From positions 124,001-188,000 of the forward strand of contig JAEUJM010000009.1 in NCBI GenBank assembly GCA_016794585.1: a stretch of DNA of 64,000 nt, given 5' to 3'. Both the position numbers and the translations under genes were made by a program. The notes beneath the pieces were generated by a model. It was not told the origin of the DNA, made no database searches, and saw nothing but the letters and a program-made list of their open reading frames with translations. Below are positions 31,071 through 36,441 of the stretch, piece after piece (positions within the stretch are counted from its first letter, which is position 1; every line of letters begins with the position of its first letter). Source of the DNA: Acidimicrobiales bacterium. GTDB taxonomy: Bacteria; Actinomycetota; Acidimicrobiia; Acidimicrobiales; DATDAH01.

Positions 31071-31778
31071 TCAAGCGCGCCGGTAGCGGTAGCCGAAACC
31101 GCGCACCGCTTCGATGGGGGAGCCGGGCCCCGTCCATCCGAGGCGTCCACGCAGGCGGTGCACCGCGAACTTCACGCGATCGCCGCCGATGCCCGTCGGG
31201 TCGTTCCACGCCTGGTCGAGCAGCTGCTCGGGGGAGAGCACCTGGCCGGGGTGGCGCACGAGCGCGGCGAGCAGTCGGAACTCCGTGGGTGTGAGGTCGA
31301 GGTCCTCCGTGCCGTCGGTGACCCGGACGAGGTGGGCGGCGAAGTCCACGTGGAGCTGCCCGTCGTCATAGGTCGTCGGCGTGGTGGTCGTGGGCGCGGC
31401 ACGGCGCAGCAGTGCGTGCGCCCGCGCGACGAGCTCCTGGTTGCCGAAGGGCTTCGTCACGTAGTCGTCGGCACCGCCCTGCAAACCGCGGACCTTGTCG
31501 GACTCGAGGCCGCGCGCGGTGATGACCATGACGGGCACGTCGCTCAGGTCCCGGATGCGCTCGAGCACGTCGAGGCCGTCCATCTGGGGGAGGCCGAGAT
31601 CGAGGAGCACCAGGTCCGGGTGGTGCTCGTGGACCGCCCGCAACCCGGCGCGGCCGTCGACGGTCGTGACGACGGTGAACCCGGCGCGCCCGAAGAGCAC
31701 CTCGAGGGCGCGGCGCAGGTCCGGCTCGTCGTCGATGACGACGAGGGTGGGTGGGGACGACGGGGTGGTGACCGTCAT
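31071..31778 (-). CDS. OmpR/PhoB-family response regulator
   Basis: A 235-aa two-domain regulator. The receiver (residues about 11-125) has the acidic pair Asp16/Asp17, phospho-acceptor Asp60 (LVLLDLGLP) and Lys109 in VTKPF. The C-terminal winged helix (about 135-233) has the family pattern LTPTEFRLLAALVRHPGQ and VHRLRGRLG ... VRGFGYRYR. The start ATG 31778 overlaps the stop of the kinase gene (ATGA), so the two are translationally coupled and are very probably partners. Downstream on the same strand lie exported-protein genes that could be its targets. The signal is unknown. Confidence 0.93.
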   Translation of the reverse strand: MTVTTPSSPPTLVVIDDEPDLRRALEVLFGRAGFTVVTTVDGRAGLRAVHEHHPDLVLLDLGLPQMDGLDVLERIRDLSDVPVMVITARGLESDKVRGLQGGADDYVTKPFGNQELVARAHALLRRAAPTTTTPTTYDDGQLHVDFAAHLVRVTDGTEDLDLTPTEFRLLAALVRHPGQVLSPEQLLDQAWNDPTGIGGDRVKFAVHRLRGRLGWTGPGSPIEAVRGFGYRYRRA

Positions 31779-33916
31779 GGTCCGACCTCCTCCGGTGGGC
31801 CGTCGTCGGGGAGCCGCACCACCACGGTGGTGCCCTCGTCCTCGACGCTGGTGAGCGAGATGTCGCCGCCGTGGCGCTCGACGATGGCGCGGGTGATCAC
31901 GAGCCCGAGGCCGCTGCCCGGGACCCGGTCGTCGGCGTTCGAGCCCCGGGTGAAGCGGCGGAAGATGGTGGCCTGCTCGGCGGCGGGGATCCCGACCCCG
32001 GTGTCGCGGATCTCGATGGCCCAGGCGGGACCGTCCCGATGGCCCTGGACGTCGACCCGGCCGCCGCAGGGGGTGAACTTCACTGCGTTCGACAGGAGGT
32101 TGGCCAGGACCTGATCGAGGCGCTGGGCGTCGGCCCGCACCGGGGGGCCGTCCTCGACCTCGGCGGTGACGGTGACGTCACCGGCCTCGGCAAGTGGGCC
32201 GACCGAGGCGATTGCCGCCTGGACGTGGGCCGCGAGGTCGACCTGCCCCGGTCGCACGGGCAGCTGCCCGGACTCGAGCCGGCCCAGCAGCAGCAGGTCG
32301 TCCACGAGGTGGAGCAGCCGGGTGGCGTTGCGCTCGATGATGGCGGCGAACTCCCGCTGCTCATCGGGAAGGTCGGCGGCGTCCTCCTGGAGCAGGCCCG
32401 CGAAGCTGGCGACCGCGGTCACCGGGGTGCGCAGCTCGTGCGACACCGTGGCCACGAACTCGTCCTTCAGGCTGGTGAGCTCCCGCAGGGAGCGGTTCTG
32501 CTCCTCGATCGCGGCCCGGGCGGCGCGTTGCTGCTCGAGGGCGAGGGCGCGCTGGGCGTCGAGGGCCTTGCGCTCGGTGATGTCCCGGTAGAGCCAGAGG
32601 TGGCCGCGGCGGACGGGGTCGAGCGGCACGGGCACGTAGTCGCGTGCGAGGGTGCGGCCGTCGGCGAGGGAGATCTCCTCGTCTCCCACCGGCGCCCAGG
32701 CCGTGTAGATGGCCTCGACGCGAGCGGCGAAGGCCGCCGGGTCGGCTACGACGGCGGCCGCGTGTGGCCGCAGGTCCTCCACGGGCCGGCCGACCACGGC
32801 GCCGGGCCCGCCGGTGAACGCGAAGGCGTCGCAGAACGCCTGGTTGGCGTAGACCACCCGGCCCGTGTCGTCGACGAAGAGGAGGGCGTCACGGAGGCTC
32901 GTGACCAGGGCGCCGAGCTGCGCCAGCGCCACCTCGAGGCGGTGCTCGGCCGCTCGACGCTCGGTGACGTCGTGGGAGGTGATGAGCACCCCGTGGATCG
33001 CCGGATCGTCGCGGAGGTCCTCGCCGACCATCTCGAGGAGGTGGAAGGTGCCGTCCGCGGCGCGCACGCGGAGCTCGATCGGGACCTCGGGGCCACGTTC
33101 GCCCGCGAGCACCTCCTCGAGCGCCTGCGCCGCGGGGGCCCGATCGTCCTCGTGGAGGAGGTCGAAGATGGGCACGTCGTAGCCCTTGGGGTACCCGAGC
33201 AGGCGGGTGCCCGCCAGGCTCGAGTACCGCCAAGACCCGTCCGGCTCGAGGACGGTCACGACATCGGAGAGGTGCCCGACCAGCGCTTGGAGCTCCCCCT
33301 CGGACCGGGCCAGAGCGGCTTGGGCCTCCCGGCGCTCGCGTTCGGAGCGGTACCCCTCGATCAGATTGCCGAGCGCGGTGGTGAAGGGGTCGAGGTAGGC
33401 CACCAGGTCGCGGTCGTAGCCGCCGGGCCGGTTGGCCACGCCGATCTGGCCCACCATCTCGTCCCGCCTGAGGATGGGCACCGCGAGGTAGCTGCGGAGG
33501 GCGGCGTGCCCGGGAGGGAGACCTCCGGCCCGCGGGTCCCGAGCGGCGTCGTTGCTGATGACCACCTCTCGATGGCGCAGTCCCCAGCCGAACAGCGTGT
33601 CCAGCTTGCGGAATTCGAGGCCTCCTCCGACGACGACGTTGTCCTCGTACAGCGTGCGGGTCGGGTGGTCCCAGGCGATGTTGGTGATCGCCCAGGTCTG
33701 GAGGTAGGGCGCACCGTGCTCGTCGACGAGGCTCTCTGCGATGTAGCCGTACTCGCTGTCGGTCAACAGGAGGAGGTCCCCGAGCAGGTCCCGGAACAAC
33801 GCCGTCGGCTGCGTGTCGCGGACGTACAGGCCGAGGGCGCGCGTCACCGATGCGAGGAGCGCGGCCTCCCGAGTGCACGACCCGCTGCTCTCCGCTGTCG
33901 AGGCATCGACGGCCAT
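31775..33916 (-). CDS. Hybrid-sensing histidine kinase (GAF-PAS-PAS-HisKA-HATPase)
   Basis: A 713-aa protein without membrane helices, hence a cytoplasmic sensor. An N-terminal GAF domain (about 18-180) is followed by two PAS domains (about 215-330 and 335-460; the PAC-type ends HDVTERRAAEHR and RDITERKALDAQR are clear). The HisKA box SHELRTP has the phospho-acceptor His, and the ATPase shows N-box NLLSNAVKF, G1 DTGVGIP and G2 GSGLGL. ATG 33916 has GGGAGG directly upstream; the reading frame extends further but without signals. It overlaps the response-regulator start by four bases. GAF and PAS domains suggest sensing of a cytoplasmic or membrane-permeable signal such as redox, light or gas; not decidable here. 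Confidence 0.93.
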   Translation of the reverse strand: MAVDASTAESSGSCTREAALLASVTRALGLYVRDTQPTALFRDLLGDLLLLTDSEYGYIAESLVDEHGAPYLQTWAITNIAWDHPTRTLYEDNVVVGGGLEFRKLDTLFGWGLRHREVVISNDAARDPRAGGLPPGHAALRSYLAVPILRRDEMVGQIGVANRPGGYDRDLVAYLDPFTTALGNLIEGYRSERERREAQAALARSEGELQALVGHLSDVVTVLEPDGSWRYSSLAGTRLLGYPKGYDVPIFDLLHEDDRAPAAQALEEVLAGERGPEVPIELRVRAADGTFHLLEMVGEDLRDDPAIHGVLITSHDVTERRAAEHRLEVALAQLGALVTSLRDALLFVDDTGRVVYANQAFCDAFAFTGGPGAVVGRPVEDLRPHAAAVVADPAAFAARVEAIYTAWAPVGDEEISLADGRTLARDYVPVPLDPVRRGHLWLYRDITERKALDAQRALALEQQRAARAAIEEQNRSLRELTSLKDEFVATVSHELRTPVTAVASFAGLLQEDAADLPDEQREFAAIIERNATRLLHLVDDLLLLGRLESGQLPVRPGQVDLAAHVQAAIASVGPLAEAGDVTVTAEVEDGPPVRADAQRLDQVLANLLSNAVKFTPCGGRVDVQGHRDGPAWAIEIRDTGVGIPAAEQATIFRRFTRGSNADDRVPGSGLGLVITRAIVERHGGDISLTSVEDEGTTVVVRLPDDGPPEEVGP

Positions 33917-34039
33917 GCCCTCCCATCGGCAGCGGAGCGGCCGCACCCAATGGCCCAGACGGCCCATGGGACCTTCGGCCCTAGTGATCGGAGGCGCGGT
34001 GCGCGGCAATGGGCCGCAACGCAACGGGAGGTATGTGCC

Positions 34040-35134
34040 ATGGGTGGTCCCGACTCCTATCCGAACCTGCCGGACACGTCGCCGGTCGGTCAGCCCCTCG
34101 ACTGGGCGTGGCTGCGCGGGGCCCGAAGCGAGTGGGGGGTGCACCCGAAGCCCAGTGCGCGGGGCCTGACCATGATGGACATCGCCGTCGGGAGCTACGG
34201 CGAGGTGCCCGAGCATCCCGCCCACCGCTCGATGGCGCCCCGGGGTGCCGACGTCGACCCGGACACCCCGGACATGGGGTACATCCTCAACGACAAGACC
34301 GACGTCTGGGCCGGCAACGTGCGTGAGCTCTACGAGGAGGCGGTGGCCCGCCAGTGGTCGGCCACGCGCGACATCCCGTGGAACGAGCTCGAGGAGCTGC
34401 CGAGCGACCTCGAGCACGCCATCTGCCAGGTCTGCACCTCGCTCACCGAGGTCGAGATGATCGCCGCCGACCTGCCCGCCAAGTGGATGTGGCGCATGAA
34501 CCACGACTTCATCGAAGCGAAGATGTTCCTCTGCACCCAGATCATGGACGAGGCCCGCCACGCCGAGGTGTTCCGCAAGCGGGCCCTGGCCAACGGCGGT
34601 GGGCTGCTCAAGTCCCGTGCCGGCCCGGCGAGCCTGCTGCGCACGATCATCGAGGCCAAGACCTACACGCAGGCCACCGCGTTGTTGCACCTGCTCGGCG
34701 AGGGCTTCATCCTCGACCTGTTCCGCCAGGGCGAGCTGCTGGCCCCGGGCCCGGTCGAGAAGAAGATGTTCCGCATGGCCATGCAGGACGAGGCCCGCCA
34801 TGTGGCCTACGGCACGATGCACATCCGCTACGCCATCGAGCACGACCCCGACGTGGCCGACGAGATCCACGAGGCCCTCGACGTCGGCGAGGCCGCCCTC
34901 GTCGAGCTCGGCACCTCGCCGGACCTCGGCACCGCCCTCGCCCTGCTGCTCGCCGGCGGCGCCGACGACGTCGACGAGGTCGGGTTCCCCCTCCAGGGCG
35001 AGCTCGTGCGCAAGCAGTTCACCTCCTACCTCTCGCGCTGCGAGCGGGCCGGGTTGAATCGCTTGGAGCGCACGACCCTGCCCCTCGACCTCCTCGGCAT
35101 CACGAGCGACGACCTCGTGGGTGTCGGGGCCTGA
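34040..35134 (+). CDS. Ferritin-like diiron protein (ribonucleotide-reductase-R2-like superfamily)
   Basis: A 364-aa soluble protein. Two carboxylate/His motifs typical of the four-helix diiron fold are present, DEARHAEVF and DEARHVAYG (ExxH each). Upstream Glu candidates lie in the helices CTSLTEVEMIAAD and HDFIEAKMF. The segment ARQWSATRDIPW resembles the QW-x-DIDW region of R2 and R2-like oxidases. Radical-site Tyr and R2 C-terminal features cannot be confirmed, so an oxidase or hydroxylase role is more likely than nucleotide reduction. ATG 34040 follows GGGAGG. It is first in an operon with an SCP2-like protein, a CxxC mini-protein and a ferredoxin, which suggests a ferredoxin-fed oxygenase acting on a lipid. 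Confidence 0.8.
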   Translation: MGGPDSYPNLPDTSPVGQPLDWAWLRGARSEWGVHPKPSARGLTMMDIAVGSYGEVPEHPAHRSMAPRGADVDPDTPDMGYILNDKTDVWAGNVRELYEEAVARQWSATRDIPWNELEELPSDLEHAICQVCTSLTEVEMIAADLPAKWMWRMNHDFIEAKMFLCTQIMDEARHAEVFRKRALANGGGLLKSRAGPASLLRTIIEAKTYTQATALLHLLGEGFILDLFRQGELLAPGPVEKKMFRMAMQDEARHVAYGTMHIRYAIEHDPDVADEIHEALDVGEAALVELGTSPDLGTALALLLAGGADDVDEVGFPLQGELVRKQFTSYLSRCERAGLNRLERTTLPLDLLGITSDDLVGVGA

Positions 35135-35144
35135 GGGGGCGGTC

Positions 35145-35600
35145 GTGAGCGCACTCCCGCCGGTGGACACCGTGGCCTTCTTCGAGGGCCTGGCCGCCGA
35201 GATGAACGCCCATCCCGAGCGCTACGAGGTGTTGGGGGACTGCGACCTCGTCCTCGCCGTCGTCATGGGGCGCGACGGCGAGGACGCCTTCCGGGCGCGC
35301 CTCACCTTCGAGGGCATCGCCTGCCTCGACGTGAGCGAGGCCGAGGCCGGCGACGAGGCCCTCGCCGACTGCTGGCTGGAGGGGCCCCTCGATGCCTGGC
35401 GGGCCATGGTCGACGACATCGTCGAGCACGGTCGGGCCACCGGGCGCCACACCCTGAACAGCCTCACCCTCGTGGGTGAGTCGATCCGGCTCCACGGAAG
35501 CGACGTCATGGGGATCGACAAGTTCTCCCGCTTCAACCAGAGCCTCCAGGAGTTCTTCGACGGAGCTGCCGCCACGCCCGCGCTGCGGGCGGGCGGGTGA
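35145..35600 (+). CDS. SCP2 sterol-carrier-like protein
   Basis: A 151-aa protein resembling the SCP2 fold: an early strand-rich half (DCDLVLAVVMGRD, FRARLTFEG), then the helix-strand part with LEGPLDAWRAMVDDI and NSLTLVGESIRLHGSD. SCP2 domains form a lipid-binding tunnel. GTG 35145 is chosen because GAGGGGGC stands 5 bases upstream; it begins 10 bases after the diiron gene's stop. The next gene starts 11 bases after its stop. In this operon it may present a hydrophobic substrate to the diiron enzyme; this is inference from context. Confidence 0.7.
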   Translation: MSALPPVDTVAFFEGLAAEMNAHPERYEVLGDCDLVLAVVMGRDGEDAFRARLTFEGIACLDVSEAEAGDEALADCWLEGPLDAWRAMVDDIVEHGRATGRHTLNSLTLVGESIRLHGSDVMGIDKFSRFNQSLQEFFDGAAATPALRAGG

Positions 35601-35611
35601 GAGGAGTGACC

Positions 35612-35809
35612 ATGGACGCCCCCACGTGCGAGCACTGCGGCAAGCCCGTCACCCGCGCCCTCGACCTGCCCTACGGCTGGTGGGAGTGGGACGGTGAGGG
35701 GTATGCCCTGAAGACCGCCTCCACCCGTGTCGACGTCGCCCCCTGGGTCCACTGGGACTGCATGGGTGAGCTCCGTCCCTTCCACCCGCAGGACGCGGTG
35801 GCCGGATGA
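35612..35809 (+). CDS. 65-aa CxxC mini-protein
   Basis: A very small protein with an N-terminal CEHCGKP and a later HWDC, giving three Cys and two His suited to one zinc site. The middle (PYGWWEWDGEGYALK) is aromatic. ATG 35612 has GAGGAG 5 bases upstream; the start lies 11 bases after the SCP2-like gene. It overlaps the ferredoxin gene by four bases (ATGA). No family recognised. It probably belongs to the same functional unit, perhaps as a structural or metal-donor subunit. Confidence 0.7.
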   Translation: MDAPTCEHCGKPVTRALDLPYGWWEWDGEGYALKTASTRVDVAPWVHWDCMGELRPFHPQDAVAG

Positions 35810-36225
35810 GCTTCAAGGTCCTCGACGACTGCATCGGCTGCGGCGCCTGCGAGTTCTCGTGCCCGACGTCGGCGCTCAGCAAGACCGATTCGTTCCTGGG
35901 CACCTTCGTCATCGACCCCTTCCTCTGCAACGACTGCGAGGAGTGCGTCGACAAGTGCCCGGTGCAGGTGATCGTGGCCGACCCCGAGTGGCCCGTGTGC
36001 TCGGGCCGGGGGTGCCCGCTCACGTCCAAGCGCATGGCCGGCGTCGAGTGCGCCTTCTGGCACGACCGCTGCCCGGACTGCGGCAGCACGATGTGGCGCC
36101 AGGACGGCGACGCCTGGTCCTGCCCGCAGTGCGGCATGCACGCCAAGGTGCGCTGCCCCAAGACCCACCACCTCGAGACCCGCCACCCCGAACCCGTGGC
36201 GCTGATCCCCCGCCCCACCGGCTGA
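35806..36225 (+). CDS. Dicluster ferredoxin with C-terminal zinc ribbon
   Basis: A 139-aa protein. The N-terminal half has two [4Fe-4S] motifs, CIGCGACEFSCP and CNDCEECVDKCP. The C-terminal half adds two CxxC knuckles (CPDCG and CPQCG), a rubredoxin/zinc-ribbon-like site, plus Cys in CSGRGCP. It would carry electrons within the cytoplasm. The start overlaps the stop of the CxxC mini-protein (ATGA). As the last gene of the diiron operon it is the natural electron donor of the diiron protein. Ferredoxin assignment is firm; the partner is inferred. Confidence 0.85.
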   Translation: MSFKVLDDCIGCGACEFSCPTSALSKTDSFLGTFVIDPFLCNDCEECVDKCPVQVIVADPEWPVCSGRGCPLTSKRMAGVECAFWHDRCPDCGSTMWRQDGDAWSCPQCGMHAKVRCPKTHHLETRHPEPVALIPRPTG

Positions 36226-36256: not shown

Positions 36257-36272
36257 ATACCCTGGGGGGTAT
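36257..36272. promoter_or_regulatory. CsoR-type operator candidate overlapping a start codon
   Basis: ATACCC-TGGG-GGGTAT is a perfect 6-4-6 dyad. Its right arm ends on the ATG at 36271. A TACCC/GGGTA dyad is the core of operators bound by CsoR/FrmR-type metal or formaldehyde sensors. Bases 36256-36261 could also act as a -10 box of a leaderless transcript. Confidence 0.5.
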
Positions 36273-36441
36273 GTGTAGACCAGCAACGTGTTCCCAGTGC
36301 GGCAAGGCGACCTACGCGGGCTGCGGCCAGCACGTCGAGCAGGTGCTCGGCGGCGTGCCCCAGTCCGAGCGCTGCCAGTGCGTCACCCACCAGCCCATGA
36401 CCCTCTGGCAGAAGCTCCGCGGCGCCAAGGCCGGCGCCTGA
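36271..36441 (+). CDS. 56-aa Cys-rich protein, probably metal-binding
   Basis: The peptide begins MCRPATCSQCGKATYAGCGQ and has six Cys (2, 7, 10, 18, 35, 37) and His at 21 and 40, enough for one or two zinc or copper sites. The pattern CRPATC-x2-CGK-x5-GCG-x-HV is, from memory, recurrent in small actinobacterial proteins of unknown function. The ATG lies inside a CsoR-like dyad and there is no ribosome site, so the message is likely leaderless. It ends before a CCTCGC/GCGAGG hairpin. A role in metal binding or sensing is inferred only. Confidence 0.75.
   Translation: MCRPATCSQCGKATYAGCGQHVEQVLGGVPQSERCQCVTHQPMTLWQKLRGAKAGA

What the first reader, a model, noticed from the sequence alone, without database searches (positions are those of the whole stretch)
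34040..36225. Compact diiron / lipid-carrier / ferredoxin operon: candidate undescribed oxygenase system
Four rightward genes with gaps of 10 and 11 bases and a 4-base overlap code for an R2-like diiron protein, an SCP2-like lipid-binding protein, a 65-aa CxxC protein and a ferredoxin with an added zinc ribbon. The set contains all parts of an oxygenase: catalytic centre, hydrophobic substrate holder and electron donor. I do not know a described system with this composition.
Basis: partly seen in the sequence, partly recalled or inferred. Interest (0 to 1): 0.7.

Follow-up and report, generated by a model that had tools for sequence, protein, structure and literature searches.

The report
Hypoxia-linked diiron, lipid-carrier, ferredoxin operon
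Four neighbouring genes that have stayed together across many uncultured Acidimicrobiia seem to encode an oxygen-using enzyme, a carrier for greasy molecules, a metal-rich electron donor and a small metal-binding helper, and they carry the switch sequence of a low-oxygen response, so they probably form an undescribed oxidation system used when oxygen is scarce.

Summary
Window 34040-36225 holds four tightly packed rightward genes: a 364-aa R2-like diiron protein, a 151-aa SCP2-fold protein, a 65-aa Cys/His protein and a 139-aa ferredoxin. In 40 of 42 independent Acidimicrobiia loci with enough sequence, all four occur in this order. A second subtype lacks the 65-aa gene. A third places diiron, SCP2-like and, in two cases, ferredoxin genes in larger clusters with PtmU3/DitZ-type 'amidohydrolases' and hydantoinase-type proteins. 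The diiron ligand pattern is complete, but the hallmark tyrosines of R2lox and of radical-type R2 are missing. The ferredoxin has 16 invariant cysteines: two [4Fe-4S] motifs plus eight more. In this genome the same box precedes nirK-like, nosZ and terminal-oxidase genes, and a DosR orthologue (60% identity) lies beside a DosS-like kinase. Best reading: a DosR-controlled, low-oxygen multicomponent diiron oxygenase/oxidase for a hydrophobic substrate. Composition, conservation and box are shown by computation; electron flow, substrate and chemistry are inferred. I found no published description. New variant of a known kind.

The parts
33968..33983 (+). DosR-type operator GGGACCTTCGGCCCTA, 56 bp between its end and the first ATG
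   Evidence: The only exact match to GGGACYWWNGNCCCTA in the window. A match of at least 11/14 to the DosR core lies within 150 bp upstream of the diiron gene in 26/45 four-gene loci and 6/10 three-gene loci, against 1-3% of dinucleotide shuffles and none of the coding controls
34040..35134 (+). R2-like (ferritin-like) diiron protein, 364 aa, with a conserved N-terminal extension of about 85 residues
   Evidence: E171, H174, E221, E251, H254 invariant in 50 sequences; E137 and E139 each in 47. AlphaFold pLDDT 92. VIA Z 23.4 to R2lox 6f6f, 23.2 to VlmB 8wvr, 22.5 to ADO 4rc7
35145..35600 (+). SCP2-fold protein, 151 aa, presumed carrier of a hydrophobic substrate
   Evidence: pLDDT 93.6; VIA Z 14.3, 126 residues, 2.3 A to SCP2 2cx7; no Pfam hit
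35612..35809 (+). 65-aa protein with invariant C6, C9, C50, H58 (probable Zn or Fe site), present only in the four-gene subtype
   Evidence: Alignment of 35 relatives; no hit to it in the three-gene or larger clusters
35806..36225 (+). Ferredoxin, 139 aa: two [4Fe-4S] motifs (C9,12,15,19 and C41,44,47,51) plus C65, C70, C82, C89, C92, C106, C109, C117
   Evidence: 16 invariant cysteines in 36 relatives, kept in the distant L127 copy. Fer4 1.3e-10. Only 4 of 396 phylum genomes have this ferredoxin, all with the diiron protein

Best explanation
The operon encodes a small multicomponent O2-activating system, expressed when oxygen falls or NO appears. The R2-like protein carries a dinuclear iron (or Mn/Fe) site that activates O2. 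The dedicated ferredoxin (two [4Fe-4S] motifs plus two likely additional metal sites) passes electrons to that site. The SCP2-fold protein holds a hydrophobic substrate (lipid, terpenoid or steroid-like acid, or its CoA ester) and presents it for hydroxylation or another oxidation. The 65-aa Cys2CysHis protein is an accessory, perhaps for metal loading or complex assembly, and is dispensable in a related subtype. A DosR/DosS pair switches the operon on through the box at 33968-33983. Shown by computation: gene set, conservation, folds, ligands, box, and presence of a DosR orthologue and a DosS-like kinase. Inferred: metal content, electron flow, substrate class, reaction, and actual DosR binding.
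For: Co-inheritance: 40/42 loci. The diiron-SCP2-ferredoxin trio recurs in a three-gene subtype (L014-L018, L020-L023) and in larger clusters (L127, L131). In the phylum sample the ferredoxin was found only in genomes with the diiron protein. Six-ligand dimetal pattern conserved, fold of O2-activating R2lox/VlmB/ADO. SCP2 fold. Larger clusters contain PF04909 proteins closest to DitZ and PtmU3, the latter an established monooxygenase of that family (PMC10401708), plus hydantoinase A- or B-type proteins: a catabolic-looking setting. DosR box enriched about 20- to 50-fold over shuffles. The same box precedes nirK-like, nosZ and cytochrome c/COX2 genes in this genome and a CBS protein, SQR, nirK-like and nosZ in relatives. 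DosR orthologue at 60% identity with an identical AEKTVKNYVS stretch, next to a GAF/HisKA_3 kinase.
Against: No experiment exists. An O2-using enzyme in a low-oxygen regulon is paradoxical unless it has high O2 affinity or acts on O2 or NO itself. The box is absent or degenerate in some relatives (19/45 below 11/14). The four-gene operon has no conserved catabolic neighbours, so the substrate hint from the larger clusters may not carry over. The own-genome amidohydrolases behind boxes are not orthologues of those in the clusters (about 37% and 27%). In one locus (L034) the ferredoxin is not next to the set.
Confidence: 0.5

Rival explanations
1. Protective reductase: the diiron protein, fed by the ferredoxin, reduces O2, peroxide or NO (as rubrerythrin-like or flavodiiron-like proteins do) during hypoxia and nitrosative stress; the SCP2-like protein protects or senses lipids.
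For: DosR-type control shared with nirK-like, nosZ and terminal-oxidase genes; operon genomes carry nosZ more often (6/23 against 18/273, p 0.006, not corrected for phylogeny).
Against: Closest folds are substrate oxidases/oxygenases R2lox, VlmB and ADO, and a dedicated SCP2 carrier is not expected for a scavenger. 17 of 23 operon genomes lack nosZ. Larger clusters look catabolic.
Confidence: 0.2
2. Lipid-quinone or polyprenoid modification: a COQ7/UbiI-UbiJ-like arrangement in which the SCP2 protein presents a menaquinone or isoprenoid and the diiron protein hydroxylates it to suit low-oxygen respiration.
For: SCP2 fold, also matching UbiJ (Z 8.2); regulon with respiratory genes.
Against: UbiJ is a much weaker match than Thermus SCP2 (8.2 against 14.3). 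No conserved quinone-biosynthesis neighbours. COQ7 relationship not tested.
Confidence: 0.15
3. Non-oxygenase R2-type role: radical generator or protein-modifying oxidase (as in RNR R2 or R2lox self-crosslinking), with the partners serving maturation.
For: Profile matches to R2 and R2lox; small Cys-rich partners could be maturation factors.
Against: The R2 radical tyrosine position is F178 (F in 49/50) and the R2lox cross-link tyrosine is Leu; no conserved neighbour such as an RNR large subunit.
Confidence: 0.08

Closest known systems
[quoted passage not shown] M. tuberculosis, G. kaustophilus GkR2loxI)
   Same: Fold (Z 23.4, 252 residues, 2.9 A), six-ligand dimetal pattern, fatty-acid binding known in R2lox; GkR2loxI reported to hydroxylate alkanes (PMC10867098)
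   Different: 16% identity; cross-linking tyrosine replaced by Leu; 37.9 bits against a cut-off of 194 for the best NCBIfam R2lox model; dedicated SCP2 and ferredoxin genes and an N-terminal extension
VlmB azoxy synthase and cyanobacterial ADO (ferritin-like diiron oxygenases)
   Same: Diiron four-helix fold (Z 23.2 and 22.5)
   Different: About 14-18% identity; different gene context (VlmB works with VlmO in valanimycin biosynthesis, PMC11705231)
Bacterial SCP2 proteins (Thermus TT1886, UbiJ)
   Same: SCP2 fold (Z 14.3 and 8.2)
   Different: About 19% identity, below every Pfam model
AibH1H2/AibG/AibF and PtmU3-type amidohydrolase-fold oxygenases
   Same: Dimetal oxygenase with a dedicated electron carrier (PMC10401708); PF04909 relatives sit beside the diiron gene in the larger clusters
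   Different: TIM-barrel catalytic protein and Rieske carrier; none in the four-gene operon
DosR (DevR) regulon of Mycobacterium tuberculosis
   Same: Operator consensus (PMC2275270), DosR orthologue at 60% identity with a neighbouring GAF/HisKA_3 kinase
   Different: Targets here include nirK-like, nosZ, PF04909 genes and the diiron operon

Membership tests
R2/ferritin-like dimetal carboxylate proteins | Four-helix bundle with E...ExxH...E...ExxH ligands | tested here: met
   Invariant E171, H174, E221, E251, H254; E137 or E139 as first ligand (47/50 each); fold Z 23
R2lox | Tyrosine five residues before the helix-3 Glu ligand (Tyr-Val ether cross-link) | tested here: not met
   Leu in the alignment to an R2lox chain in which the site is Y162F
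R2lox | Score above the curated family cut-off | tested here: not met
   37.9 bits against 194 for the best NCBIfam R2lox model
Class I RNR R2 with tyrosyl radical | Radical tyrosine seven residues after the helix-2 Glu | tested here: not met
   F178 in 49/50; class Ic R2 also has Phe there (own knowledge), so this excludes only tyrosyl-radical types
AurF-type N-oxygenases | Seventh ligand, His four residues before the last ExxH Glu (own knowledge) | tested here: not met
   Residue 247 is A, C, T, S or V in all 50; the focal protein has no PF11583 hit, although an own-genome paralogue has
SCP2 | SCP2 fold | tested here: met
   Foldseek top hits are all SCP2; Z 14.3 to 2cx7
SCP2 | Binds a hydrophobic ligand | not testable with these tools
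   Needs binding assays or mass spectrometry
Dicluster ferredoxin (FdxA-like) | Two CxxCxxCxxxC motifs | tested here: met
   Invariant in 36 sequences; FdxA_fam 53.7 bits, below its cut-off of 65
DosR regulon | DosR box upstream and a DosR orthologue in the genome | tested here: met
DosR regulon | DosR binding and induction by hypoxia, NO or CO | not testable with these tools
   Needs gel-shift and expression data
Multicomponent diiron oxygenase | O2-dependent substrate oxidation driven by the cognate electron carrier | not testable with these tools
   Needs enzymology

The most novel reading that the evidence does not exclude
A hypoxia-induced, self-contained diiron oxygenase system that uses a dedicated SCP2 protein as substrate chaperone and a ferredoxin with four metal sites, working at low oxygen as the first step in breaking down terpenoid- or steroid-like molecules, or in remodelling lipids, in Acidimicrobiia.
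Probability: 0.35. Interest if true: 0.75.

Novelty: new variant of a known kind. Interest (0 to 1): 0.6.

Why it matters
Acidimicrobiia are widespread, mostly uncultured bacteria of soils, lakes and seas. A conserved oxygenase-like system under a DosR-type low-oxygen switch would link O2-dependent chemistry to hypoxia, would add a substrate-chaperone design (SCP2) and an unusual 16-cysteine ferredoxin to the diiron oxygenases, and would extend DosR regulons outside mycobacteria to denitrification genes. Each part can be tested with ordinary enzymology.

Tried and rejected
Conserved neighbours beyond the four genes: none across lineages, only local synteny. Direct link of the own-genome box-preceded amidohydrolases with those of the larger clusters: only about 37% and 27% identity, so not orthologues. 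Strict tie to denitrification: weak, 17 of 23 operon genomes lack nosZ. Plasmid carriage: only three distant partial hits. A first, too strict regular expression for the box found it in 14/45 loci only; scoring against the published DosR core replaced it. Two sublineage palindromes (TGAGACG...CGTCTCA and CGATAACG...CGTTATCG) were seen but not assigned to a regulator. Complexes of the proteins could not be modelled with the tools at hand. Literature searches for the gene combination and for DosR in Acidimicrobiia gave nothing; subscription papers are not covered.

Full report
WHAT IS THERE. The four genes exist as described: diiron 34040-35134, SCP2-like 35145-35600, 65-aa 35612-35809, ferredoxin 35806-36225, with gaps of 10 and 11 bases and a 4-base overlap. 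Upstream and divergent lies a GAF/PAS histidine kinase with an OmpR-type regulator (31071-33916); downstream on the other strand is a protein with a PPC domain.

CONSERVATION. The genome is held as G000 (5.49 Mb, 51 contigs); its closest relatives are Acidimicrobiia. The diiron protein is 69-82% identical in 48 named loci, nearly all Acidimicrobiia or Actinomycetota MAGs. Of 42 loci with at least 1300 bp downstream, 40 carry all three partners in the same order. The exceptions are L034, where no ferredoxin follows, and L081, an internally deleted copy. Protein distances are correlated between the genes (r 0.74-0.93), as expected for joint inheritance. A second subtype (diiron 55-60% identical) has diiron, SCP2-like and ferredoxin genes but no recognisable 65-aa gene (L014-L018, L020-L023). 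In a sample of 296 genomes of the class, 31 have a diiron relative at E below 1e-20 and, by my count of partner genes, 23 of them belong to operon types: an accessory trait, not a core one. No other gene is conserved around the four across lineages. In a 396-genome phylum sample the ferredoxin profile finds only four genomes, all with the diiron protein.

LARGER CLUSTERS. More distant diiron proteins (about 45% identical) lie with an SCP2-like gene in L127, L129, L130 and L131, and with PF04909 proteins and hydantoinase A- or B-type proteins in L127, L128, L130 and L131; L127 and L131 also have the ferredoxin (the hydantoinase and PF04909 assignments were checked with Pfam for L120/L128, L108 and L127, and read by sequence similarity for the others). 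The PF04909 proteins of L127 match DitZ (8uyr, 4e-55 and 2e-50) and PtmU3 (6omp, 3e-44 and 1e-42) far better than ACMSD-type decarboxylases. PtmU3 is an established monooxygenase of that family (PMC10401708) and belongs to platensimycin (diterpenoid) biosynthesis (own knowledge). This suggests, but does not prove, a hydrophobic, terpenoid-like substrate class. Other relatives, including three paralogues in this genome, lack SCP2 and ferredoxin partners; two of the distant ones sit with acyl-CoA dehydrogenase-like genes.

DIIRON PROTEIN. AlphaFold gives pLDDT 92. VIA-align finds R2lox (Z 23.4), VlmB (23.2), Kitasatospora 6d9f (23.0) and ADO (22.5) as near-equal neighbours at 14-18% identity, well above the level of 13 that the tool calls uninformative for helical bundles. 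E171, H174, E221, E251 and H254 are invariant, and E137 and E139 are nearly so, one of which should be the first ligand. The R2lox cross-link tyrosine is Leu, the R2 radical tyrosine position is Phe in 49 of 50 and the AurF extra histidine is absent. So it works like an O2-activating member of this superfamily but is not an R2lox, tyrosyl-radical R2 or AurF by the features tested.

SCP2-LIKE PROTEIN.

FERREDOXIN AND SMALL PROTEIN. Sixteen cysteines are invariant in 36 relatives: two [4Fe-4S] motifs and eight more (C65, C70, C82, C89, C92, C106, C109, C117). C89xxC92...C106xxC109 looks like a zinc ribbon; C65, C70, C82 and C117 could form a further site. Even the distant L127 ferredoxin keeps all sixteen. 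The 65-aa protein has invariant C6, C9, C50 and H58 and no clear relative of known structure.

CONTROL. Reading the upstream regions of relatives showed a recurring GGGAC-N6-CCC palindrome. It matches the DosR consensus TTSGGGACTWWAGTCCCSAA (PMC2275270). Within 150 bp upstream, 26/45 four-gene loci and 6/10 three-gene loci score at least 11/14, against 1.2% and 2.7% of dinucleotide-preserving shuffles and none of the coding controls; none of 8 distant relatives does. In the window it is the only exact 16-mer, at 33968-33983. In the whole genome the 16-mer occurs 10 times (9 distinct places, as one palindrome counts on both strands) against 1 for the reversed control. Box centres lie 41-71 bp before start codons of nirK-like, nosZ, cytochrome c/COX2 and two PF04909 genes. 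Relatives add a CBS-domain protein, a sulfide:quinone reductase, nirK-like and nosZ genes, the diiron gene in two genomes and, in G279, the ferredoxin gene itself. The genome has a DosR orthologue (60% identity; next best 40%) with the same AEKTVKNYVS stretch in the DNA-binding domain, beside a divergent GAF/HisKA_3 kinase. The DosR query was recalled and then verified identical to PDB 3c3w over 217 residues. The box also lies upstream of the divergent kinase in this window, but it recurs in loci with other neighbours, so it most likely serves the operon. Presence of nosZ is associated with the operon (6/23 against 18/273, p 0.006), without correction for phylogeny, and most operon genomes lack nosZ.

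HOW IT PROBABLY WORKS. Low O2 or NO activates DosS/DosR; the operon is expressed; reduced ferredoxin delivers electrons to the dimetal site; O2 is activated; a hydrophobic substrate offered by the SCP2-like protein is oxidised. The 65-aa protein helps assembly or metal loading. All steps after the presence of the box and of DosR are inference. The main rival is a scavenger of O2, peroxide or NO; the SCP2 partner and the catabolic look of the larger clusters speak against it, the regulon speaks for it.

NOVELTY. Diiron oxygenases with dedicated electron carriers, SCP2 chaperones (UbiJ) and DosR regulons are each known (partly own knowledge). Their union in one compact operon was not found in the searchable literature. 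I rate it a new variant of a known kind; it would rise if a new reaction were shown.

Noticed in passing
L162:1480-3344 (window's own genome, contig C44): DosR orthologue (60% identity to M. tuberculosis DosR) with a divergently transcribed DosS-like GAF/HisKA_3 kinase; the genome-wide box set includes nirK-like, nosZ and terminal-oxidase genes, i.e. a DosR-type regulon that covers denitrification.
   Followed up: partly
L127:6394-13009, L128:7352-15397, L130:9021-15921, L131:3923-10508: Larger clusters combining a diiron relative, SCP2-like protein, PtmU3/DitZ-like PF04909 proteins and hydantoinase-type proteins, two of them with the 16-cysteine ferredoxin: candidate catabolic cluster for hydrophobic compounds.
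   Followed up: partly
L112, L113, L114: Distant diiron relatives beside acyl-CoA dehydrogenase-like genes (L112, L113) or PhnD-like substrate-binding proteins (L112, L114), suggesting other uses of the same diiron family.
   Followed up: no
L036, L038, L041, L045, L049-L054 and L048, L058, L060, L063, L065-L067, L071, L076 upstream regions: Two lineage-specific palindromes upstream of the diiron gene (TGAGACG...CGTCTCA and CGATAACG...CGTTATCG), probably sites of a second regulator.
   Followed up: no
L081:6001-6927 (also L027): Operon copy with an internal deletion that joins the diiron gene at about residue 138 to the 65-aa gene at about residue 37 and removes the SCP2-like gene; decay or assembly error.
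   Followed up: no
window 31071-33916 (-): GAF/PAS/HisKA histidine kinase and OmpR-type response regulator, divergent from the operon and sharing its intergenic region with the box.
   Followed up: partly
window 36271-36441 (+): Small Cys-containing ORF (56 aa) after the ferredoxin; no relatives found in the fetched loci.
   Followed up: partly
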